Shown piece after piece: positions 33,245 through 63,137 of a stretch of 64,000 nucleotides of DNA. Source of the DNA: Tubulanus polymorphus (lineage: Eukaryota > Nemertea > Palaeonemertea > Tubulaniformes > Tubulanidae). The stretch's first letter is position 1; every line of letters begins with the position of its first letter. Where the stretch lies: assembly GCF_964204645.1 (NCBI RefSeq), contig NC_134032.1, positions 12,890,275 to 12,954,274 on the forward strand, in the 5' to 3' direction. Under the pieces are notes generated by a model. That model saw only the letters and a program-made list of their open reading frames with translations. It was not told where the DNA came from and did not search any database. A program made the translations under genes and the position numbers.

Positions 33245-34020
33245 GTTTAAAGCGCCGCCATTTTGTTTTTGTTACCACGCTTCAAAGTCTTACTTATTTC
33301 GACTACGATAAGATATTCGACCTGACAACGTCACATTGTATATCGTGAAAGTGCTATGAAAACACGATCGTAGTCACGCCATCTGGTGGTGTTTGTTCGG
33401 CGGTACCTCGTTGACGTTCGATGAAGAACATTCATTGCCTTCCGTCAATCTTGTATACCGAATGATTCGTTCCCCGTCAGGCGTGATGACACCCATCTCA
33501 AACAAACAACATCTAACACCGCATGATATAAGATTATCACCAGCGTTTGATGTCTTACATCACGTACGTCGTGAAAGAAAGTGACAACGTTTAATTTTTT
33601 GCTAGCATTTGTGCTGTATATCACATCAGTGATTGTGGGTCTGCGCTGGAGACATCACTTCCGATCAAAATACAGGAAATCTAAAGGCCACTGTTAGGGC
33701 GCACAATTGATCGGTCAGTCAGGGAGTTAGCCGGCTATATTTACGAGTTATCAGTTAGTCTGAACTTTAGTCGGGAAATATAGTGAACGATGCAACCAAG
33801 CACCGGGCCTAGTTCCGAGATGGCCGACACTGCGAAATGCGTGAACAAGCTGTGCGTTGAAAAGCAAAGTTCGCCCTAATCGTCGAATAGGCATTGCTAC
33901 TGTGCCAGTGTCGATGTTTCTTTGAGAATCCACCAGGTTCGATAGACGCAAGGCGTTGATAAATGAAGAAATCCCACACTTCGAATTTGAAATTATACGA
34001 TCAAATTTATTATTATGAAA

Positions 34021-34064
34021 CCACAACGTTTCGGCTGTTGACTAACAGCCATCATCAGGTAGAA
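34021..34064 (-). ncRNA. Hammerhead-ribozyme-like motif (-)
   Basis: Mirror copy in the left arm of the palindrome. On the minus strand it carries CTGATGA (34058-34052), a fully Watson-Crick stem GGCTGTT/AACAGCC with loop AGTC, GAAACGTT and GTGG. The same single extra U precedes the stem. Stem I is one pair weaker than in the right arm (CTAC instead of CCAC). Confidence 0.55.
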
Positions 34065-34088
34065 TGCCATCATCATCATCAGCCATCA

Positions 34089-34134
34089 TTCCACCTGATG
34101 ATGGCTGTTAGTCAACAGCTGAAACGTTGTGGTT
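34089..34134 (+). ncRNA. Hammerhead-ribozyme-like motif (+)
   Basis: CCAC (34091-34094), CTGATGA (34095-34101), stem 34103-34109 with 34114-34120 closed by loop AGTC, GAAA (34121-34124), self-complementary ACGT (34124-34127), T, then GTGG (34129-34132) pairing with the first CCAC. This is the order CUGANGA, stem II, GAAA, short stem III, UH, stem I expected of a type I hammerhead. The self-complementary ACGU suggests stem III forms between two copies (dimeric form). One extra U (34102) sits between the CUGAUGA box and stem II, a departure from the consensus. Confidence 0.55.
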
Positions 34135-34192
34135 TCATAATAATAAATTTGATCGTATAATTTCAAATTCGAAGTGTGGGATTTCTTCATTT

Positions 34193-36189
34193 ATCCACAG
34201 TATACACGGATTATAGTGTTTATTCGACAACTAACAAGACGTTGAATTCCTGAGGCACCGATGCGCTACTTTGGCAATTTAGGATTCTCCGAGGATCAGC
34301 CGGGTTCGTTAGTATCGAATAAACATTTCTCGAGGGAACCTGTTTATGAATGAAAACAATATCAAACACCACGTTGGATACAGGTCTATCAATGTTACAT
34401 CTTTTGGTGGCTCATTTTACTGCACCAAGTTCAAAAGATATCAGCATGGGCATCAACATAGGGAATCGGGGATGCGGACGACCCCTCTACCGCTGTCTTA
34501 AGTTCCAATCATTCTTTTTCATATTCCGGAAATTTTATGAATATTTTGCCATAAAAAGGTCGAGAAAACGTCACTCTCAAGCTTCGAATGTCAAAGATTA
34601 TGACTTTTTAAGAACATTTAACCGATTTCAAGGATTCAGAAATGTTCGTTTGCCATCAGCGATCGGCGAATCATGTTGCTATATGCCATGTATGGCATAT
34701 CGTTTCGATCGCTGAAATAATGCCGATACAACAACGGACCACGTACAGACCGTTTTATGAAATCACTCGTGATACCTCTTATTTGAATACACTAACACTG
34801 ACTACATGTTGGATGTCTACACGTAGAAGGTTCGATTATAATTATGTATTCGTCAATGGCAGCCTTATGATTGAAATTGCCGTTGGTCATCAGCTGTCTG
34901 TCACGAATAGCTGCGGCTACCGGGCCTGATATTGATTGCTCGAATGATGGTGGTCCGATGGGAATTATTAATCAAGTGTAATTTTCATACCTCTCAGAGC
35001 AAAACCACTTTTATTGTTGTTTGATGACCACACATAAACGCTGCATTGGTCCAGTGGGCTAAGGCAATTGGTGAAAAATACATTTCAGAGCACCTAACCA
35101 GCTCATTGTTTTGGCAACATAAGAATGATCATATTCTTGCATTTCATGGACGTGTCATAAACCTAACGCATACGACCCCTGTTTTTGCCCCAGTGGGATA
35201 AGGCATGATGTTGTTGCATTCATTTCAGCGCTGGGTAGCAAGTTAGTTAGAGTCCTGCTTGTCGCTTAAAGTGTGCGGGCAACACGTCAAAGGTCGTCCT
35301 ATCGCTAAATTAAATGAACAATCCAATATGTGTAGCCTTGGGAAACAAGATCTAAACGGATTAAATGTAAATCAAAACAAATAGACCCATAGTTCAATTC
35401 GATGGAACGTGCGCAACTCGCAGACCCTGTTAAGCTCCTTGTTTTTTACAACATATGCGACTCGTACTAAGCACAGTAAAATCTGCCTACTTTTGGTGTT
35501 TAGCATTTGCACGGAATTGGCTAAATCTGCAACAAAAGTATGCTTGGAATAACACACATTCGTTGTTAAAGCCACATACGAAAGATAATGTCTTGGTTTA
35601 CACGGCTTTACACAGATGCTATCGAGTAATTGTCTTTGCCATCAGATCTTCTTTCTTCATTCTGTCGTTCATGTCACATAGCTGACGCCTAGTCATTTGT
35701 CTCGTGTTTTGCCTATGCGTGTCGACAACCGATTTGTCGATATCTATAACAAGTACTGAGTACACGGACATCTTTCCGACGGATTTGAGTCGTATTTGTA
35801 TCACCGGTGCAACGACAAAAATGCGTTTGTTACACGGTAATGCCATTTCGTCGGCGATTGCTCGCGGAAATCGAGTTCCGTTTTTGAACATGCTAGTCTG
35901 TCATCGCCGAGCAAATTAACCCGACGCTAAAATGTCTTCATTCAACGGAACGATATCGTGACAGACATTTCTGCCCGACATTCCACCCAGACAGACGTAA
36001 TCGTCGCGTATTATCAGCATCAGCTCAGCCCCATCTCTTTGGGACATTCAGTCAACGTGAATATGAGGTAACGTAAAACGAAAATGGGAACCACGACGTC
36101 GTGTTAACTACGGCGCGCGTGGTTGATGATAACTTGCCAAAAGTGCAACCAACTAATGCCGGGTCCTAAGCTGCGTCCTACTGCAGACA
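34193..36189. other. Intergenic; SINE-like pieces and a coding-like minus-strand stretch
   Basis: 35050-35075 and 35188-35275 contain the A-box-like CCAGTGGGATAAGGCATGAT and a weak B box. On the minus strand, 36050-35920 is open for a 45-residue sequence starting Met-Ser-Gln-Arg-Asp and 35891-35619 for 90 residues; together they look coding but are separated by stops and have no clear splice signals. ORFs at 34350-34929 show no features. Confidence 0.35.
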
Positions 36190-48367: not shown

Positions 48368-51197
48368 ATGGACCTAACCGATGAATTGGGCGGACCGCTT
48401 GAATTGTTTGTGACCAGATATCCAAACAACATGAACGAGACTGTCAGCAGGTATTTGAATCAAGGGGTAAGTATAACGATATACCCATCCATACTAAATG
48501 CGGGTAACTTCACGCATGGCGCAATCAGAGGGCAGACTGTAATTCTCTATATTGAATTGAATTGAGTAGCTCATTGGGATAAGGCGTGATGTTCTTTAAT
48601 TTCTGAGCGACAAACGACGGCTGAGTGACTAATATGGGTTCGAGTCCTGCTATAACGACTTAAAGGCCAGTTTCGAATGGACGTTCGGCTAAAGAATAGC
48701 AATTTCTTATTACATGCTGTCTGTTATTTCAATCCGGAATAAAAAGAGCCATAAGACTAGTACATGTATAAGCGAAAGGGAAGGCCGACTCCTCCTCAAA
48801 ATTCAGCTAGGTACCGCTAGTAATCTTGTCTTTTGATCAGCGCCCTCATCGTTAGCGATAAACAATGAATTCTTTAGACTGGTTGCCGGTCTCTAGGTCT
48901 CTATTCTTAATAAGCGTTTTTCAGAACTTGTTCAAGTCTTAAAACCTTGAAGAAAACGCGATCCTTAATTATTATACTCGTGGAAAAAAAATACTAAATT
49001 TCCGGGAATGTATTGTTTTTTTTGCTGACGATGAGGGCGCTTATCAATTTCGAAGATCGCAAAGGCTAATGAATAGTGACGTCACAGAGTCGGCGCTCCT
49101 TTAGTTTATATTTCTATAGTAGAGCGTATATTCTGGATGGAAAGAATTCCAGAATCGGTAGTAACAAATCGAAACCGGCCTAGATCAATGGCGCTTTTCA
49201 CTTCGCCCGCTGCATCGGTTTTCGAATTCAAAATCTCGTGCCCCGGTTCGGCGAGATCTGTGAGCCCGTAATCCTACCTCGTTACGATCAATCTCATCTC
49301 GAATGTCGAAGAACGTAAGTATAATTACACACACACAAGACATCAGCGTTCAGACGAACGAGCGAGGGCGTAGGAAACAAGAGATAGAGAAGTGTGGCTG
49401 ATTAGTTGTAAACATGGTTTTCCTGACACAATCAACAACGCACCGATGATTCCGGCAATCAGGCATCGGGCATAATCCATCGTAACGTATTCCTTTCAGT
49501 TAAATGTGCGTTACGTTTGGTTATGTTCCGTTGCTAGTTTGCATATACAACACCATAAAAGGCGAACTGTGACCCGAAAGGTTGAGATGACGTCATTATT
49601 TTTTGTGCTTTTTTCTGTTTTTCTAATTCCATGTGAATGTTATCATAGTTTGAAGTAACGAATGAATACTGATTAATAGATATGAAATGATAGTAAAAAA
49701 GTAAGATTTGTATCCTTAAACTTTACCGATTCTGGGGAGTATTAATCCACTGTCTAGAACCAGAAATATGTTTCAAAACGAACTACAAACATCAGGCATC
49801 AGACCTTTGATCCATACGGTCCACACTACAGTGGTGAATGTCAGACGGGGGGATTGTTCTAGGCAGCATATTGAAATCTACGTCCGATTCTACAATAACC
49901 ACTCGAATTTTTTCGTCCTTTTCAGTCGGTCAATGTAAACTGCATAAACAAACTCATTCAGGAATATTTCAAAAACGAAACCCTGTCGTCGAAAGGCAAC
50001 TGTACCGTACAAGATGTCGACGAGCCGTTTGTATTGAAGTTCGGCACGATGTTCTACGCGTACGTGACGCCGCTGATAATCATTATCGGACTCGTCGGCA
50101 ACAGCATCAGTTTGAACGTGTTCACCTCGAAACGCATGAAGCGTCACAGCGCCAGTTGTAGTTACTACCTGGCAGCCCTTAGCGCAGCTGACCTTCTCGT
50201 ACTTATCGTTTACGTACTAGTCGAATGGCTCAAATCGGGCCTGCCCGACTTGCCGGGCAATCTGCACCTGGGCATCGTCGACGTGAAAGGCGCGTGCCAT
50301 ATATTTTTGTATCTGTCGTACGTTGTAAGGTTCATGAGCGTGTGGCTGTTGGTGATCTTCACGTTCGAACGCTATATCGGCGTCTGCAAACCGTTGCAGA
50401 AAAAGAAGATCTGCACGCGAAAGAGCGCCCGCCGTATTATCAGCGGTTTGTTTTTGTTGGCCTTGTCCGTTTCGATATTCCGGCCGTTGATGAGCGGCGT
50501 GTACGAGGTGCTACCCGACTCGGGGGTCTACCGATGCGTGATGAGTCCGAACCTTCACCTGGCGTCGTTTCTACTCGACAGCATTTACGGTATCTGCGTG
50601 ACACTGATCCCGTTTATCATCGTTCTCGTGTTCAATATGATGATCGTACGGAAGTTGTTCCGGCGAACACGTCGCCACAATCGATTTCAGGGATTCATTT
50701 CTCAAGAGGGACGAATACGAGTTGAGTTCACCGTGATCTTGTTGGCTATATCTACCTGTTTCATTACTCTGAACTCGCCGTACTTCGTGGCTATGTGCTA
50801 TCAACGTTACCAGGCCCACTTCGGCGAACACCTATTCATCAACCATCTGTCGATCGAAACTTTCTCGTTAGTCGACTTCAGAGCGTTGATCGGCATTCTG
50901 AAAATCACCAAGACGATATTCTTCGTGAACTATTGCATCAACTTCTTTTTGTACTCGATCACGGGCGCGTACTTTCGCCGCGAAATGCGAATGGTGTTTT
51001 CGTACAAGTTCAAACGGACCACGGAGCCGCGCGCGTCCAAATCGCAGTCGGCCTCGAGGGATCAGGAAAATAACCACCGACACGTACCGGAGCAGCCCGC
51101 CAGTGCGCCGTCACGTGTGGCGGTAAAAAACACGACCGCTTCGACGCCGCCGACGACAAATCACTCGGGAACGCGCCAGGCTCGATCATGGGTGTAG
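48368..51197 (+). CDS. Rhodopsin-family GPCR 1, peptide-receptor-like, 456 aa
   Basis: Coding exons are 48368-48466 and 49926-51197. The donor GGG|GTAAGT and acceptor TTTTCAG are both phase 0. The ATG directly follows a 5' UTR acceptor (TTTTTAG). The extracellular N-terminus of about 75 residues has three glycosylation sites (N-E-T twice, N-C-T). Seven membrane segments follow: TM1 with G-L-V-G-N, TM2 with A-A-D-L-L, a Cys at the start of TM3 and one in loop 2, E-R-Y at the end of TM3, TM6 N-S-P-Y, TM7 N-Y-C-I-N-F-F-L-Y-S in place of NPxxY, and helix 8. The last ~55 residues are a Ser/Thr/Pro-rich cytoplasmic tail. This resembles invertebrate FMRFamide- or thyrotropin-releasing-hormone-type receptors, but the ligand is unknown. 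A possible alternative first exon starts at 49303. Confidence 0.85.
48565..48675 (+). repeat. tRNA-related SINE in intron 1 of GPCR 1
   Basis: A-box-like GTAGCTCATTGGGATAAGGC and B-box-like GGGTTCGAGTCCTGC are spaced about 75 bp apart, longer than in a tRNA. The sequence is similar to 35188-35275. Confidence 0.55.
49077..49084. promoter_or_regulatory. Canonical CRE, TGACGTCA
   Basis: A perfect palindromic cAMP-response element about 225 bp upstream of the possible alternative start exon of GPCR 1. A second perfect TGACGTCA lies at 49588-49595 in the same intron. Confidence 0.45.
49303..49314 (+). promoter_or_regulatory. Possible alternative first coding exon of GPCR 1
   Basis: ATG-TCG-AAG-AAC is followed immediately by a strong GTAAGT donor in phase 0, so it would splice in frame to the exon at 49926. 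It lies downstream of a CRE and in GC-richer sequence. The resulting receptor would have a shorter N-terminus. Confidence 0.35.
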
Positions 51198-54425: not shown

Positions 54426-55870
54426 TTAACACGATACGGGTGATACACAATCACCAGGTCCATCCTTGAAGGTTTCAATGGCGCCTGCAAAAAATAACAT
54501 TGGAATTGGAATTACTTTCGAGAATTTTAGATAATACGTAATTAGAAAAGTAGAGCTTATATTCTTCGGAGTTCATTTCGAGATCTCAAATCTAAATCTC
54601 ATCTCCACTGAAACGGTAAATGTAGAACAACATTCAAGTACAGAATTACCGTTCCTTTGATGACGGAGATTAAGATAAATCTCGAAACTCTCGGATAAAA
54701 AGTCTTTGAAATGTAATCATTGTGGGATTTTCATCACCGGGAAAGCATCGGTTAATCCATCAAAGCTGTGATTCAACACGGTATAATCCAACATAAGATA
54801 TCTCATGACATCTCATGATACAAGGAGGAAAAACGTTTCGACTTTATCCGAAAAGTCATCTTCAGGCATAACAGTCATTTTCAATATTCCTGAAGATGAC
54901 TATTATAGTATATAAACGATATTTTGAATATAAACTATACAGCTAAAAGACACTTTTGGGCTCGTTTTTCTCTTTTAATTTTTGGATTTTCACCGTTTCA
55001 TCAAAATTCCCAGATTAACCATAATATTAAGTGTCGTTGATACGTACGCTTGGCCATGTCAACATCGTTCAGTTTTTCAATCTCATCCGCATCTACAACA
55101 CGAAAATATACAAAATCCTGCCTTTTATTAAAAGCTGCGAGTAAAATTCTACTTCAATCGACAAAGTTCCCCGACTGAATTTCAAGCATCGCTGGTTGTC
55201 TAATTCACTTCACAGAGATTTGTCTAGATTACAGAGGCGCAGAACACCACGTCAATGTAAACCCATATTATGCCTTCAGCTTCAGACATAATTTGTTTGG
55301 GTAAGTTTTTTTTACGATTGCCATACAACTAGACCACATCATGTCGCGGGCCGATAGTTTCGTTTTTTTTCTATCTAATGGTGAGGCTATCTAGATATGG
55401 AACATGTATTCTGCGAAAAGTCGGTCAAAGTTAGAACTAGCGAACTGAGCAGCATAATCCTCGATTGCCACAGTAGCGTTGGTCATAGCCCATGTAGGTT
55501 ACGCAATGACGCCAAACGAATGTTTACACGGGTCATATCTATTGGACGTATGAACTGTGACCTTAACGCGTCATTTTGGACGTAAAACCCAACACACACG
55601 ATGCAGGGAAACACGAAACACGTAATCAGTTTCCGTATTTCCTTTCGTCATGTGCGTCGGGTTTTTCTGCTTACGCTTGACGTCCAAAATGACGCGCCAC
55701 CGTGACTTCGGTTGCATTACTTCTACCGGTATACCTGTTTCATTCTAAATGGCCAAACCAAAAAGATTCTTACGTAATGCTTTCCTTTCAACAGCAGCAT
55801 CAGCAGAAATGCTGAACATGCCGACAGCAACGAGAACAATCATCAGGCATAGGAGTTTCGTTTGTGACAT
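54426..55870 (-). CDS. Small secreted peptide precursor, neuropeptide-like, 66 aa, three exons
   Basis: Exons on the minus strand are 55870-55774, 55092-55048 and 54484-54426. Donors are GTAAGA and GTACGT; acceptors are TTGTTGTAG and TTTTTTGCAG. Both junctions are phase 1 and the sum (201 nt) is in frame. Exon 1 gives a signal peptide of about 25 residues (core L-L-C-L-M-I-V-L-V-A-V-G). Residues 26-46 are an acidic spacer, followed by Lys47-Arg48, a prohormone-convertase site whose Arg codon spans the last splice junction. The final 18 residues form the predicted mature peptide, ending in G-D-C-V-S-P-V-S-C, with one possible disulfide. There is no amidation glycine. One C-terminal peptide behind a dibasic site is the layout of allatostatin-C/somatostatin-type precursors, and the P-V-S-C end is faintly similar, but the ring is smaller; homology is unproven. 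A short secreted effector is the alternative. Poly(A) signal at 54361-54366. Confidence 0.7.
54826..54870 (-). ncRNA. Hammerhead-ribozyme-like motif in intron 2 of the peptide gene
   Basis: On the minus strand: CTGAAGA, one extra T, stem GACTTT/AAAGTC with loop TCGGAT, then GAAACGTT. This is the same architecture as the 34.0 and 57.4 kb motifs, with different stem bases, so the pairing is compensated rather than merely copied. A decayed plus-strand partner starts at 54889 (CCTGAAGATGACTAT). The motif has the same orientation as the host gene. Confidence 0.5.
55517..55746. mobile_element. Fold-back element in intron 1 of the peptide gene
   Basis: GCGTCATTTTGGACGT near 55568 is mirrored by ACGTCCAAAATGACGC near 55680. 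The outer parts (CCAACACACACGA and TCATGTGCGTCGG, GTGACC and CCGTGAC) are also inverted. No coding capacity. Confidence 0.65.
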
Positions 55871-56990: not shown

Positions 56991-57362
56991 TGAAAACCAG
57001 TCGCCGGTAAAGCGAAAGAGGATTGTCTTATCATTGCACGCTCATAACTTTCTCAGATCTCAACTCCCGAAACCGCCTTAAACCCACGACTAAGAAATTT
57101 GATCCAGACGAATTGAAACTCACGATATTGTGGAGTTGAATATCTAGCAGAATCGATAACATTACCTTTACGTTATTCCATATGCCCTTTTAGCAAGTTT
57201 CTAAAACCAACCTCTAATCGATTGGCAGATATGATTTCTCATGACCCCAACAAATAAAAAAAAAATATATCCAAAACAGATATTGATTTGTCATAAGGGA
57301 CCCAAATGAACTGAAAAAATAAATATGGGGTATGCCCTACTGCCAAAAGTATGTTTGGGCTT

Positions 57363-57560
57363 GAGGAGAGAATCCCACAATGATAATAAAAAGTCCGAAA
57401 AAGAAACCTCGAGATAGTAGTTTATTTCAACGTTTCGACTATATCCTAATAGTCATCTTCAGGAATAATGTAATTAGGATATAGTCGAAACGTTGAAATA
57501 AACTACTATCTCGAAGTTTCATTTTCGGACTTTTTATTATCATTGTGGGATTCTCTCCTC
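57363..57560. mobile_element. 198 bp palindrome with a hammerhead-like motif
   Basis: The left end GAGGAGAGAATCCCACAATG is mirrored by CATTGTGGGATTCTCTCCTC on the right. The arms of about 90 bp share CCGAAAAAGAAACCTCGAGA in slightly diverged form. The left arm carries one complete hammerhead-like core. The right arm keeps the AGTCGAAACGTTGAAATAAA part but has lost the CTGAAGA half at the centre. Confidence 0.85.
57424..57470 (-). ncRNA. Hammerhead-ribozyme-like motif
   Basis: On the minus strand: CTGAAGA (57462-57456), one extra T, stem GACTAT/ATAGTC with loop TAGGAT, then GAAACGTTGAAATAA. The following GAA can pair with the TTC just before CTGAAGA as a weak stem I. Confidence 0.5.
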
Positions 57561-57792
57561 ATCGCGTCAACACGGATATAGTGTTCTACCAATCGTGATG
57601 TTTGGGCTTCCCAGGGTTAAAGAGAAATAAATTCTAAAATAGCGAACGACTCTGGAACACTGTACAGAACACTATGCATTCACCTGTCTGTCAATGGATA
57701 GAAAAGTGGTAAGGGTATAGTATATAATTTTCTTCAACACACCGTATGAAATCCTTCTCTACAATTATAGTCATTTCCCAACATCGCATTTG

Positions 57793-58782
57793 ATGGAAAT
57801 GTTAAACGCTTCAGTTGTGCAGAAATGTTTCCCTCGTAGTCGCGTCATTTGGAATCTGATCGCAGTATCTATGATAGGACCGATTGGTTGGTTTGGTCTG
57901 GTATCCAATTCCGTTACTATAGCTGTGCTTTATCGGCTCCACAAGACGAATAGCTCCACGACTTCGCATTTCGTTTTATTGTTATTAGCCGTTTTCGACA
58001 TCGTCTGTTGCGTCGCGATCATCATCTACAACCATTTCGTTTGGGTTTTGAAATTGATTCGCCACGGAAGAACCGGACTGTATTTAGACATGGGTTTAGG
58101 GGCCCCTGAACTTTACATAACGGGTAATTTAATCTCAAAATGGGGTTCTTACATTCGCAACGGCCTGACGCTTTTAGTGACGTTCGACCGAGCATTTAAC
58201 ATTTGCTTTCCACTCAAAGCTAAACGCTATTGGGGGTTTAAACATTGTTATATATTTTCAGCCGTTTGCGTAATCGTATGGACTGCCTTGATGTGTGACC
58301 GCGCGCAGAATCGAATAGTTGCGTACGTCAACGCGACGTGTACATACGGCTTGTCAATCCGCGACGTAAAAACTATTTTTCAACCTCATAGAAATAGTTA
58401 TGTATTTGAAGTCATATCGACGACGTATTTACCATTCGCTCTTATACCGCTACTGAATACGATCATGATAATTAAACTACGAATTCACGCGAGAAATAGG
58501 AAGAATCTGACAGGCGCTGATACGAGTAGAAAAACTAAACAAGATGGAACCGGCCACAGAATGGTGTTTGTTGCATCCGCTTTATTTATGGTGTCTGTTT
58601 TTCCAGATATGGCATTCAACATTCTGTTCATGTACTTGTCATGGTCTGTTGTGTGGCCGGTTTTGCTTTTGAATGATGTTTTTCAAGCCCTGAATTCATC
58701 TGTGAACGGTATATTCTATTATGTATACAGTAAAAACTTTCGACAAGAAATAAAGTCGTTGCGCTTCCAAAGAACAGTCTAA
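57793..58782 (+). CDS. Rhodopsin-family GPCR 2, 329 aa, single coding exon
   Basis: The open frame is preceded by an in-frame TTG, but the first ATG is at 57793. A 5' UTR acceptor (ACAATTATAG) ends at 57770. An N-terminal glycosylation site (N-A-S) precedes seven membrane helices: TM1 G-L-V-S-N-S-V, TM2 F-D-I-V-C, TM3 ending V-T-F-D-R-A, a loop-2 Cys preceded by N-A-T, TM6 with V-F-P-D, and TM7 L-N-S-S-V-N-G-I-F-Y-Y-V-Y instead of NPxxY, then a short helix 8. The usual TM3 cysteine is not evident, so the conserved extracellular disulfide may be missing. The sequence is divergent from GPCR 1. Type is peptide/chemosensory-like orphan; ligand unknown. The short tail and intronless frame fit a tandemly or retro-expanded receptor family. 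Confidence 0.85.
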   Translation: MEMLNASVVQKCFPRSRVIWNLIAVSMIGPIGWFGLVSNSVTIAVLYRLHKTNSSTTSHFVLLLLAVFDIVCCVAIIIYNHFVWVLKLIRHGRTGLYLDMGLGAPELYITGNLISKWGSYIRNGLTLLVTFDRAFNICFPLKAKRYWGFKHCYIFSAVCVIVWTALMCDRAQNRIVAYVNATCTYGLSIRDVKTIFQPHRNSYVFEVISTTYLPFALIPLLNTIMIIKLRIHARNRKNLTGADTSRKTKQDGTGHRMVFVASALFMVSVFPDMAFNILFMYLSWSVVWPVLLLNDVFQALNSSVNGIFYYVYSKNFRQEIKSLRFQRTV

Positions 58783-59307: not shown

Positions 59308-60288
59308 TCACGATCTAGTGATCGCCGCGCGCAAGTCCTTCTGGAATTGTTGACTGCTAGCCACGTAAACGAACCCGTTGATCACGTGATTCACGTCGTA
59401 TATCATTTGACCGAATTCATAGCCGAACAACAAGAACGCCCCGTACGCCGTGTCGCAATGCGTCCAGTAGTACAGGCCGGTTTTTTGAGCCGTGCCGTAT
59501 TCCAAAAACAGCAGTTCAAACAAACCCGCCGGGAATGTAGATACCAGAAATACCAAAGCCGTTGTTACCACGAGAACGGTGATCTTCCTCGACGCGTCTT
59601 GCTTCTTCGCCGTTTGCGAAATCTGTTGTTGTTGTTGCATATTCGCCGATTTTCTGACCGAGGATATGATGACGGCGTTAGTGACGGCTATAACCGGTAT
59701 CGGACCGTACAGAGAAAGTACGTTGACGACGATTTCGTAGATAAACGCTATGTTTATTTCATCGATCTGACAAGTTGTACGGATGTCGTGTTTGTGCGGT
59801 TTGAAAAAAATCGACCAAGCGAAATTGTAAGCGGCCAACAAGCAAACGGCGCCGGATATGCTGACCTTCGCTCTTTTGATGGTGCATAAAGATGCGGCCT
59901 TCAGAGGTTGAGAAACGGCTACAGCGCGATCTACGGTCATCAATACCAGAATCCAAATAGCGACCTGAGTAGGACAGACGGCGTGGAACTGTCGCAGTAC
60001 GCATTCGATCCGATTGAAACTGTATCCGAATTTGTTCATCAGCCATTGAGTTTGCATCGACACGATGGCGTATAGATCGGCCACGCCGAGAACGATCATG
60101 TAGAAGTGTCCCGTGCTTTTCGACGCGCGTTTGTAACTGCCCAAAACGACTATGACGAAACTAACGAGGCCGATGATCGGGAATATGAACGCCATGTAGT
60201 AACGCATGTCCCGGATGTGCAGCGTCACATCGGTATACAGGAGCTGAAAACACGCCGGGCTCGCAGCCGGTCCAGTGCGATTTATCAT
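59308..60288 (-). CDS. Rhodopsin-family GPCR 3, 326 aa, single coding exon
   Basis: The start is the ATG at 60288. A UTR acceptor with a long pyrimidine tract (TTTTCAAATTTTAG) lies just upstream at 60312. An N-terminal N-R-T glycosylation site and two Cys precede seven helices: TM1 has G-L-V-S-F where Asn is normally found, TM2 V-A-D-L-Y, Cys at the start of TM3, V-D-R-A at its end, loop-2 Cys, TM6 with T-F-P-A, TM7 V-N-H-V-I-N-G-F-V-Y. Intracellular loop 3 carries a poly-Gln patch. TM6-TM7 and the tail resemble GPCR 2 more than GPCR 1, so the pair, which is convergently transcribed, may be an old duplication. The missing TM1 Asn is unusual but seen in divergent receptors. Ligand unknown. Confidence 0.85.
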   Translation of the reverse strand: MINRTGPAASPACFQLLYTDVTLHIRDMRYYMAFIFPIIGLVSFVIVVLGSYKRASKSTGHFYMIVLGVADLYAIVSMQTQWLMNKFGYSFNRIECVLRQFHAVCPTQVAIWILVLMTVDRAVAVSQPLKAASLCTIKRAKVSISGAVCLLAAYNFAWSIFFKPHKHDIRTTCQIDEINIAFIYEIVVNVLSLYGPIPVIAVTNAVIISSVRKSANMQQQQQISQTAKKQDASRKITVLVVTTALVFLVSTFPAGLFELLFLEYGTAQKTGLYYWTHCDTAYGAFLLFGYEFGQMIYDVNHVINGFVYVASSQQFQKDLRAAITRS

Positions 60289-60334
60289 CACTCGATATTT
60301 TCGGTGTTATTCTAAAATTTGAAAAAAACACCAA

Positions 60335-62093: not shown

Positions 62094-62183
62094 AATGACG
62101 CCCGCGGGTTCAGCGATTAGTTCTCATCTTACGGTATCGGTATCGGATTCGAGACGTCGTCCTCTGTAGTAATAGTCGACCTG

Positions 62184-63137
62184 ATGTCTATTACGAACAG
62201 TACGGTCGTCGAATCGGCTCGATTTTGGATCGGGCGCGTCGTCCCGCCTATTTTCATTATCATCGGTTTGATCGGCAACGCCTTGGCCATGTTGATTCTG
62301 TCGCAATCGCATTACCGACGAAACACCACGTGTCTGTACATGCGAGTCACTTCTATCGTCGATACAGCTTATCTAATCGGCAGGTGTCTTCAACGCTATC
62401 TGTTCACTATGATACCCGCTATATTATCTTCACCGCAGATTAAGAAACCCCTTTGCCTCGAATATTTCTTCGTCTACACAACGGCCGACGATATTTCGTG
62501 CGTTCTGCTGCTCGCGATGACCGTCGAACGGTCGCTCGTACTCGCTTTTCCGTTCAAGTCCAAGCAGCTATCGACGATGCGACGCGCCTGGGTCACTATC
62601 ATCACCATCGTCCTTATAGTCGTTCTATTGAGCGCTTTCAATTTCATTCGTTCGCGTCACGATAAGTACCGCGTCTGGACGTGTCCGTACCACTTCCACA
62701 ACGGATTCGACGTCGTCTACGACACGGTGCACGCCATCATTCCGACCGGCGTGGCGTTTTTACTCATCGCCCTAAACGCGTTCATCATCGTGACCGTAAC
62801 GCGAAGTTCAAAGGCAGACGTCGGTAAGCAGGTTCAAGCGGCGGAATCGACATCGTCGGCTAGTCATATCACTCGTTCGCTGGTCGTCCTGACAACTTCC
62901 TATTGTCTGTTTCGCTTCCCGTTGACCTTGTATAAGATCATGTATTCGATGCAGTCGTACAAGGCCGGCTCCGGTCTCACCGACTCAGAACACAGTTTGA
63001 TTTTCGACGTCACTGTTTACTGTCGCTACGGATACTTCGTTTTCAACAGTTACATGTACATATTATCGTGCGCTAAGTTTCGCAAAGAACTCGGCATATT
63101 TTTCGCTGGTGGGCGATATTTGGTTTGCTTACGTTAA
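62184..63137 (+). CDS. Rhodopsin-family GPCR 4, 317 aa, single coding exon
   Basis: The ATG at 62184 lies in a UTR-plus-coding exon whose acceptor (TTTGCTTTCAG) ends at 62093. An upstream ATG at 62095 opens a 24-codon uORF that ends before the main start. The N-terminus is short with N-S-T. Helices: TM1 G-L-I-G-N-A-L-A, TM2 S-I-V-D-T-A, Cys before TM3, TM3 ending T-V-E-R-S, loop-2 W-T-C, TM6 with F-R-F-P, TM7 F-N-S-Y-M-Y-I-L and a short tail. The TM1, TM6 and TM7 motifs resemble FMRFamide-receptor-like families of lophotrochozoans. Conserved Cys are present on both sides of the usual disulfide. Poly(A) signal at 63279-63284. The uORF may damp translation. Confidence 0.87.
   Translation: MSITNSTVVESARFWIGRVVPPIFIIIGLIGNALAMLILSQSHYRRNTTCLYMRVTSIVDTAYLIGRCLQRYLFTMIPAILSSPQIKKPLCLEYFFVYTTADDISCVLLLAMTVERSLVLAFPFKSKQLSTMRRAWVTIITIVLIVVLLSAFNFIRSRHDKYRVWTCPYHFHNGFDVVYDTVHAIIPTGVAFLLIALNAFIIVTVTRSSKADVGKQVQAAESTSSASHITRSLVVLTTSYCLFRFPLTLYKIMYSMQSYKAGSGLTDSEHSLIFDVTVYCRYGYFVFNSYMYILSCAKFRKELGIFFAGGRYLVCLR

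What the first reader, a model, noticed from the sequence alone, without database searches (positions are those of the whole stretch)
33961..34192. Inverted pair of hammerhead-ribozyme-like motifs in a 232 bp palindrome
Seen directly: each ~100 bp arm contains CTGATGA, a seven-base-pair stem with loop AGTC, GAAA, the self-complementary ACGT, then T and GTGG that can pair with CCAC before CTGATGA in the right arm. Established knowledge: Penelope-like retroelements and retrozymes carry type I hammerheads with very short stem III that work as dimers. Inference: the self-complementary ACGU lets two copies form a shared stem III, with cleavage predicted after the U that precedes GTGG. The consistent single extra U before stem II departs from the consensus, so activity is uncertain and this may be a variant class. 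Opposed copies on both strands mean either transcript direction would contain one motif plus its complement.
Basis: partly seen in the sequence, partly recalled or inferred. Interest (0 to 1): 0.8.

Follow-up and report, generated by a model that had tools for sequence, protein, structure and literature searches.

The report
Palindromic Penelope insertion carrying hammerhead motifs
A short mirror-image piece of DNA turns out to be the footprint of a Penelope-like jumping element that seems to copy itself onto both cut strands of its target at once, with a small known type of RNA-cutting motif on each half.

Summary
The palindrome and both hammerhead-like motifs are real. The unit is larger than reported (window 33949-34245): target duplication, left arm, 19-nt filler, right arm, a 40-nt tail on one side only, target duplication. 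It belongs to a Penelope-like retroelement (PLE): the same leader and tail flank an ORF with RT and GIY-YIG matches. The hammerhead reading is supported but untested for cleavage: stem II covaries between PLE families of this genome, and the "extra U" is nearly fixed; a review reports that U there speeds a viroid hammerhead 3-4-fold. PLE hammerheads are a published kind. The inverted pairing is best explained as an integration product. Of 30 independent copies 27 have duplications; 28 of 28 systematically sampled pairs (24 independent) carry exactly one tail; 33 of 56 usable inner ends cluster at a predicted RNA 5' end and one lies near the cleavage site; in 8 of 26 scorable copies the tail-less arm reaches further inward, which simple self-priming cannot give. 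I infer reverse transcription primed on both target strands, then end-joining. A second PLE palindrome lies at 57351-57609.

The parts
33949..33959 (.). left target-site duplication CAAGGCGTTGA
   Evidence: (11 nt, 1 mismatch to the right copy)
33960..34066 (-). left arm: tail-less copy of the PLE 5' leader, outer end at the proposed proximal RT start (TAAATG...)
34021..34062 (-). hammerhead motif on the minus strand: stem I CTAC/GTGG, CTGATGA, T, stem II GGCTGTT/AACAGCC, GAA, ACGT, T; predicted cleavage between 34025 and 34024
   Evidence: cleavage site inferred from the hammerhead consensus (recalled)
34067..34085 (.). filler of this copy at the junction of the two arms
34086..34193 (+). right arm: tail-bearing copy of the PLE 5' leader; 34088 is the A of the Inr-like TCATTCC taken as +1
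34091..34132 (+). hammerhead motif on the plus strand: stem I CCAC/GTGG, CTGATGA, T, stem II GGCTGTT/AACAGCT, GAA, ACGT, T; predicted cleavage between 34128 and 34129
   Evidence: covariation of related motifs; cleavage site inferred
34194..34233 (+). tail: stretch between the proposed proximal and distal RT start sites, present on one side only
   Evidence: tail explained in PMC11167929
34235..34245 (.). right target-site duplication CAAGACGTTGA
57351..57362 (.). target-site duplication AAGCCCAAACAT of a second PLE palindrome (another family)
57363..57560 (-). second head-to-head palindrome (arms 57362-57450 / 57473-57561, 89 nt, 98%), with one complete hammerhead CTGAAGAT...GAAACG on the minus strand at 57462-57431; the tail-less arm is the longer one inside
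57561..57597 (-). 37-nt tail of the second palindrome, on one side only
57598..57609 (.). second copy of the duplication AAGCCCAAACAT

Best explanation
The palindrome is a minimal insertion of a Penelope-like retroelement. The element's RNA is predicted to start at an Inr-like TC[A]TTCC and to begin with a small hammerhead, followed by about 65 nt, a proximal RT start site, a tail of about 40 nt, a distal RT start site and the ATG of the RT-endonuclease ORF. The endonuclease cuts both target strands with a stagger of 10-15 bp. One strand primes reverse transcription at the distal start (giving the arm with the tail), the other at the proximal start (giving the arm without). Both cDNAs usually run past the hammerhead to the RNA 5' end, and their 3' ends are joined by microhomology or with filler. 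This leaves a head-to-head palindrome with one tail and a target-site duplication. The hammerhead belongs to the leader, so each full arm carries one copy. Shown here: anatomy, duplications, one-tail rule, end positions, covariation. Inferred: RNA start, two-strand priming in vivo, end-joining, self-cleavage.
For: PLE: a 713-aa open frame beside the same leader and tail, with RVT_1 and GIY-YIG matches in its C-terminal part. Duplications: 27 of 30 independent copies versus 1 of 870 mismatched flank pairs. Exactly one tail: 28 of 28 pairs in a systematic sample, 24 independent; also 2 of 2 family-B palindromes read and the second window palindrome. Arms share source variants: within-copy divergence 4.06% versus 7.36% between copies, 0 of 20,000 permutations (23 copies). 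Inner ends: of 56 usable, 33 lie at -3..+5, 9 at +6..+10, 10 at -6 or beyond, 4 at +44..+71; a TATA-like TTTATATG starts 31 nt upstream of +1 in 4 of 6 copies printed. The same junction (TGA overlap) occurs in L014, L017, L018, which have different arm variants, and its mirror image in L015 and L016. A purified PLE protein cuts and extends both strands and starts at two sites separated by the tail (PMC11167929, parts 1-2 of 4). Hammerhead: stem II 91.0% of cells paired versus 69.0% shuffled, 5 of 6 pairs change on both sides.
Against: No RNA, cDNA or biochemical data from this organism. [quoted passage not shown] Of the 117 sampled arm ends 61 had no head-to-head partner by the exact-match scan (37 with tail, 24 without; arithmetic); these are unexplained by the palindrome model alone. 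3 of 30 copies (L002, L003, L025) have no duplication by my test. In 12 of 23 copies another element's right arm is closer to the left arm than its own partner. Ten ends lie upstream of the proposed RNA start, so some templates were longer. Rfam's hammerhead models do not reach threshold. The predicted monomer minimum (-16.2 kcal/mol) pairs part of the catalytic core; the hammerhead fold scores -14.0. The covariation is mostly the contrast between two large families, so few independent events, and two of the five measures do not exceed the shuffles.
Confidence: 0.7

Rival explanations
1. Self-priming (snap-back): a cDNA end folds back on itself, so the second arm is a copy of the first. Self-priming on an antisense template was proposed for palindromic PLE junctions in Adineta vaga (PMC3846280, passages).
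For: Palindromic junctions, and arms sharing variants, are expected. In 11 of 26 copies the two inner ends differ by 4 nt or less.
Against: A snap-back copy cannot reach further inside than its template. The tail-bearing arm must be the template, yet the tail-less arm reaches further inward by 5 nt or more in L003, L011, L014, L017, L018, L045, L060 and L076 (8 of 26 copies with both ends usable), and in the second window palindrome. In 7 others the tailed arm is longer by 5 nt or more (L004, L006, L015, L016, L044, L047, L077).
Confidence: 0.12
2. The palindrome is a self-propagating non-autonomous element (retrozyme- or SINE-like) whose hairpin RNA, with two opposed hammerheads, is itself mobilised by the PLE.
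For: Hundreds of cores and many two-armed copies of similar length. Seven copies of the L004 group share one junction type.
Against: Centres differ between most independent insertions; the shared ones (L014/L017/L018, L015/L016) are a simple TGA/TCA overlap, and L014 has other arm variants than L017 and L018. The L004 group shares flanking DNA, so it spread inside another repeat or by duplication.
Confidence: 0.1
3. A foldback DNA transposon or MITE with terminal inverted repeats moved by a transposase.
For: Short inverted repeats flanked by target duplications.
Against: The outer ends are unequal: the tail is on one side in 28 of 28 sampled pairs. The same leader and tail flank an RT-endonuclease ORF. 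One-armed and truncated forms exist.
Confidence: 0.02
4. The hammerhead-like motif is only a conserved stem-loop for protein binding or RT start and does not cleave.
For: Arms mostly run through the predicted cleavage site to the proposed RNA 5' end. Rfam models miss it. Anole PLE hammerhead mutants still insert in vitro (PMC11167929).
Against: Stem II covaries, and N7, H17 and one stem I pair vary where hammerheads allow it (the consensus is recalled). The anole PLE hammerhead cleaves when its protein is added (PMC11167929); a paper title reports that small PLE hammerheads cleave as dimers (Lunse 2017, seen only in a reference list).
Confidence: 0.2

Closest known systems
Endonuclease-containing Penelope-like elements with inverted pLTRs and tail (Adineta vaga Pen families; PMC3846280, passages seen)
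   Same: RT + GIY-YIG in one ORF, inverted pLTR, optional tail (31 bp) on one of the inverted pLTRs, short target duplications, TATA and Inr-like motifs in the pLTR
   Different: Here the tail lies just upstream of the first ATG of the frame rather than inside the ORF. Many copies consist only of two leader arms (about 200-240 nt without the tail). The one-tail feature holds in 28 of 28 sampled pairs. The inner ends of 8 of 26 copies contradict simple self-priming.
Poseidon_Ac (PAc) of Anolis carolinensis, in vitro (PMC11167929, parts 1-2 of 4 read)
   Same: Two adjacent internal RT starts separated by the tail, both target strands cut and extended, hammerhead near the start of the ORF
   Different: PAc's start sites lie inside the ORF. 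No genomic palindromes or strand asymmetry of the start sites are reported in the parts I read.
Small PLE-associated type I hammerheads, said to act as dimers (Lunse, Weinberg, Breaker 2017; Cervera and de la Pena 2014; neither text is held, titles and review passages seen)
   Same: Minimal type I hammerhead in PLE leaders, helix III nearly absent
   Different: A nearly fixed extra U between A9 and stem II in the families listed here. Whether this is already described in those papers I could not check.
CChMVd plus hammerhead with extra A10 (review PMC3705267, passages seen)
   Same: One extra base between A9 and G10.1; U there raises trans-cleavage 3-4-fold
   Different: Viroid, A in nature
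Metazoan non-LTR retrozymes (PMC7229834, passages seen)
   Same: Type I hammerheads in mobile repeats
   Different: Those are tandem repeats of about 150-450 bp; these are head-to-head leader copies of a PLE

Membership tests
Penelope-like element (EN+) | RT and GIY-YIG endonuclease in one ORF | tested here: met
   RVT_1 E 7.3e-07 (29.5 bits, just under the cut-off of 29.6), GIY-YIG E 2.4e-05 (25 bits, cut-off 22.6), same 413-aa frame of L052; the upstream piece of the frame (L051) had no Pfam match
Penelope-like element (EN+) | repeated leader (pLTR) in direct or inverted order around the ORF, with optional tail | tested here: met
   (L051+L052)
Penelope-like element (EN+) | target-site duplications | tested here: met
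   27 of 30
Penelope-like element (EN+) | placement of the RT in the PLE branch of a tree | not tested
   no tree was built
Type I hammerhead ribozyme | core CUGANGA ... GAAA, A15.1-U16.1, H17 | tested here: met
   (this locus: CUGAUGA, GAAA, ACGU, U); N7 = U, C or A, H17 = U or C in relatives. CTGANGA and GAAACG were part of the pattern, so their constancy there is by construction; for copies found by overall similarity
Type I hammerhead ribozyme | stem II formed and kept by compensatory change | tested here: met
   91.0% of cells paired, shuffles 69.0% (0 of 500), slid 23.8-46.2%; two of five measures not above the shuffles; mostly an A-versus-B contrast
Type I hammerhead ribozyme | stem I formed | tested here: inconclusive
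   CCAC/GTGG in family A, ACAC/GTGT in family B: one compensatory pair; L083 has a mismatch
Type I hammerhead ribozyme | match to Rfam RF00163 at its cut-off | tested here: not met
   (73 of 34410 candidates scored). The very short stem III and the extra base are the likely cause (inference)
Type I hammerhead ribozyme | self-cleavage | not testable with these tools
   needs RNA
Non-LTR retrozyme | tandem repeats of about 150-450 bp with a type I hammerhead | tested here: not met
   head-to-head arms
Foldback transposon / MITE | symmetrical terminal inverted repeats | tested here: not met
   one tail in 28 of 28 sampled pairs

The most novel reading that the evidence does not exclude
PLEs integrate by an obligatory paired reaction: a (probably dimeric) enzyme on one structured RNA leader starts reverse transcription on the two target strands at two different, fixed positions, one on each side of the tail. 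Insertions are therefore born as two convergent cDNAs that meet by end-joining, and inverted pLTRs are the normal product rather than an accident.
Probability: 0.48. Interest if true: 0.7.

Novelty: new member of a known kind. Interest (0 to 1): 0.52.

Why it matters
How PLEs integrate, and why their ends are so often inverted, has been open: self-priming on an antisense template was proposed in 2013 (PMC3846280), two-strand extension was seen in vitro in 2024 (PMC11167929). This genome offers a large natural experiment. The one-tail rule, differing junctions and end positions separate these models and make the question testable. The hammerheads add several PLE families of one genome in which the extra U is nearly fixed, useful for cleavage tests; Rfam's models miss them.

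Tried and rejected
Rfam scan of the window at gathering threshold, and of the palindrome and four fetched loci at E up to 10: no hammerhead over its cut-off; the high scores to microRNA models reflect the long hairpin and are below their cut-offs. Rfam RF00163 over the genome: one weak place (C10:12399595, E 0.75; 73 of 34410 candidates scored), read as L080 and judged chance by eye. A pattern without the extra base (N18): 6 places against 895 for N19; all 6 still have T after CTGANGA. HHR-cleaved RNA as template: 1 of 56 usable ends (L044, +44) lies within 3 nt of the predicted site at +41/+42. Dropped before counts: L005, L009, L010, L012, L013, L031 (same insertion as L004 by flanks); L022, L027, L033, L044, L045, L047, L060 from the arm comparison; the ends L022 right, L027 right, L028 left, L033 right, because internal deletions mimic ends. 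L063 (37th element) has no recognisable tail by the scan, a tail-like stretch by eye, and was left out. The host species was not identified. On re-checking the draft I mended: the co-fold statement (families B and E do show intermolecular helices there), the counts of unequal arms, the range of duplication lengths and the unpaired ends; confidence was lowered slightly for the unpaired ends.

Full report
OBSERVATION. The palindrome is real: arms of 112 nt, 97% complementary, 20 nt apart, each with CTGATGA, an extra T, a 7-bp stem with loop AGTC, GAAA, ACGT, T and GTGG. A search of the window's own genome (267.8 Mb, 77 contigs) with the 232 bp gave 84 matching pieces, with 721 first-look candidates of which 40 were scored. 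The 25-nt core with up to 3 mismatches occurs 322 + 341 times; the reversed control gives 0 and 0.

ANATOMY. Aligning 40 loci showed that the unit is larger than reported. One arm ends at ...CTTCATTTA; the other continues for about 40 nt (TCTACAGTTTACACGGATTATAGTGTTTATTCGACAACTA in many copies) and then meets a target-site duplication. A scan of the loci held at that point (L001-L079) found 37 two-armed elements: 36 with exactly one recognisable tail, and L063 with none by the scan but a tail-like stretch by eye. The next script required a tail and kept 36, or 30 after collapsing six that share the flanks of L004; 27 of the 30 have duplications (10-15 nt, at most 1 mismatch), against 1 of 870 pairs made from mismatched flanks. 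The window copy has CAAGGCGTTGA / CAAGACGTTGA.

WHICH ELEMENT. L051 and L052 overlap and show one insertion of about 3.1 kb. In order: an inverted leader with hammerhead, a stretch of body end, then hammerhead-arm-tail, an ATG two bases after the tail, a stop-to-stop frame of 84 aa and a later one of 713 aa, then body end, hammerhead, arm and tail; short matching flanks (CTTCCGGCACA) lie on both sides. The 413 aa of that frame held in L052 match RVT_1 (29.5 bits, just under the cut-off of 29.6) and GIY-YIG (25 bits, over its cut-off); the upstream piece had no Pfam match. A protein search found 103 matches (101 scored of 1473 candidates); 8 of the listed ones lie in open frames of 833 aa at 64% identity. 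This is a Penelope-like element (PLE).

HAMMERHEAD. An open-core pattern (CACCTGANGA-N19-GAAACG) has 461 + 434 matches, control 0. Most of the 100 listed places are of two families, GGCTGTT/AACAGCC (A, this one) and GATCTC/GAGATC (B); GGCTAA/TTAGCC and GGCTGG/CCAGTC rest on a few and on one place. A further family (E, CTGAAGAT...) includes the second palindrome of this window. On the 35 distinct listed variants, stem II pairs in 91.0% of cells versus 69.0 +/- 2.0 shuffled (0 of 500), with changes on both sides at 5 of 6 pairs; the number of such pairs and of further pair types did not exceed the shuffles (122 and 70 of 500 reach them). Much of this is the A-versus-B contrast, so it reflects few independent events. 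Stem I differs by one compensated pair between A (CCAC/GTGG) and B (ACAC/GTGT, L081), and H17 is T or C. The extra T is present in 98 of the 100 listed places. A pattern one base shorter has 6 matches, all still with the T. In two-armed copies found by overall similarity, GAAACGT is intact in 32 of 38 arms. A review states that in the chrysanthemum chlorotic mottle viroid the plus hammerhead has an extra A at this place and that A-to-U raises the trans-cleaving rate 3-4-fold (PMC3705267, passages). Reviews state that PLEs carry minimal type I hammerheads that may act as dimers, citing Cervera 2014 and Lunse 2017 (passages; those two papers are not held). Against: Rfam's models do not detect it, and the predicted monomer minimum (-16.2) is better than the hammerhead fold (-14.0). 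Co-folds of two copies gave an AACGUU/AACGUU helix in family E, an intermolecular helix across that region in B and none there in A.

WHY INVERTED. (1) One tail. Exact arm ends on C1 to C4:23.07 Mb (117 of 286 in the genome) were read with 16 following bases; 28 of 28 head-to-head pairs have exactly one tail (17 right, 11 left), 24 after collapsing shared flanks. With 65 of 117 ends tailed, independent choice would give one tail in about half of pairs; by hand arithmetic 24 of 24 has a probability of about 4e-8. The other 61 ends had no partner by this exact-match scan (37 tailed, 24 not). Two family-B palindromes (L081 tail left, L082 tail right) and the second palindrome of this window obey the rule too, read by eye. 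(2) Shared source. Arms of one copy differ by 4.06%, arms of different copies by 7.36% (23 copies; 0 of 20,000 permutations); in 11 of 23 no other right arm is closer than its own. The permutation does not remove subfamily structure, which a common source RNA would also produce. (3) Differing junctions. Centres differ between most independent insertions. The repeated centre of L014, L017 and L018 sits in different arm backgrounds, and L015 and L016 show its mirror image; both are explained by a 3-nt TGA/TCA overlap between two cDNA ends of the same sense. (4) Inner ends. Of 60 ends in 30 copies, 4 are masked by internal deletions. Of the other 56, 33 fall at -3..+5 around the A of TC[A]TTCC, 9 at +6..+10, 10 at -6 or beyond, and 4 at +44, +51, +63, +71. 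TTTATATG starts 31 nt upstream in 4 of 6 copies printed. This fits run-off at an RNA 5' end; there is no pile-up at the predicted cleavage site (+41/+42). (5) Unequal arms. In 8 of 26 copies with both ends usable the tail-less arm reaches further inward by 5 nt or more (5, 7, 7, 7, 7, 12, 61 and 82 after subtracting overlaps), in 7 the tailed arm does, in 11 they agree within 4. In the 8, the tailed arm cannot have served as template of the other.

MECHANISM. Frangieh et al. (PMC11167929, parts 1-2 of 4 read) found that the anole PLE protein cuts and extends both target strands, starts internally at two adjacent sites separated by the genomic tail, and does not need hammerhead cleavage for insertion in vitro. 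Put together with points 1-5, each palindrome is most simply two convergent cDNAs of the same leader, one from each start, joined at their 3' ends. The authors saw no difference of start site between strands; the strict pairing of one proximal with one distal start is therefore an inference from this genome. The self-priming model of PMC3846280 (passages) fails for the 8 copies of point 5 but may apply to some others.

LIMITS. One genome of an unnamed eukaryote (receptor genes in the window suggest an animal); no RNA data; first-listed places only in several searches; exact-match sampling favours young copies. In their listings I noticed no paper that states the one-tail rule or explains PLE palindromes by two-strand priming, but I opened passages or parts of only seven papers, and only open-licence papers are held.

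Noticed in passing
window 57351-57609: A second PLE palindrome of another family, with a 37-nt tail on one side, a 12-nt duplication and hammerhead CTGAAGATGACTATTAGGATATAGTCGAAACG on the minus strand.
   Followed up: partly
window 54834-54865 (-): A third hammerhead-like motif (CTGAAGATGACTTTTCGGATAAAGTCGAAACG); a stretch at 54879-54912 is the inverted likeness of part of the second palindrome. Looks like a decayed relative.
   Followed up: no
G000 C1:31204418-31204725, 31318601-31318839, 31400185-31400697: Tandem arrays of the CTGAAGAT...GAAACG hammerhead with about 69-nt spacing towards the end of C1: a hammerhead satellite with a short unit. The sequence could not be fetched.
   Followed up: no
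L041 1501-1563, L043 1462-1525, L044 1501-1642, L046 1501-1642: Tandem 38-39-nt units made of CTGATGA plus stem II plus ATCATCATTCCAC (variants) in some copies; only the last unit is followed by GAAACG (GCAACG in L044). Probably template slippage while the cDNAs were made or joined.
   Followed up: partly
L004, L005, L009, L010, L012, L013, L031: Seven copies share the same flanks, so one palindrome was spread inside another repeat or duplication; their centre is an ATC run of varying length, longest in L031.
   Followed up: no
L082 379-396, L081 91-108: The family-B tail holds a 5-bp stem ACCAC...GTGGT, reminiscent of the AC-rich stem-loop where RT starts in the anole element.
   Followed up: no
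window 49899-51197, 57721-58782, 59308-60306, 62121-63137: Open frames that look like 7TM receptors; the first, second and fourth match Pfam 7tm_1 or 7TM_GPCR_Srw, the third was not scanned.
   Followed up: no
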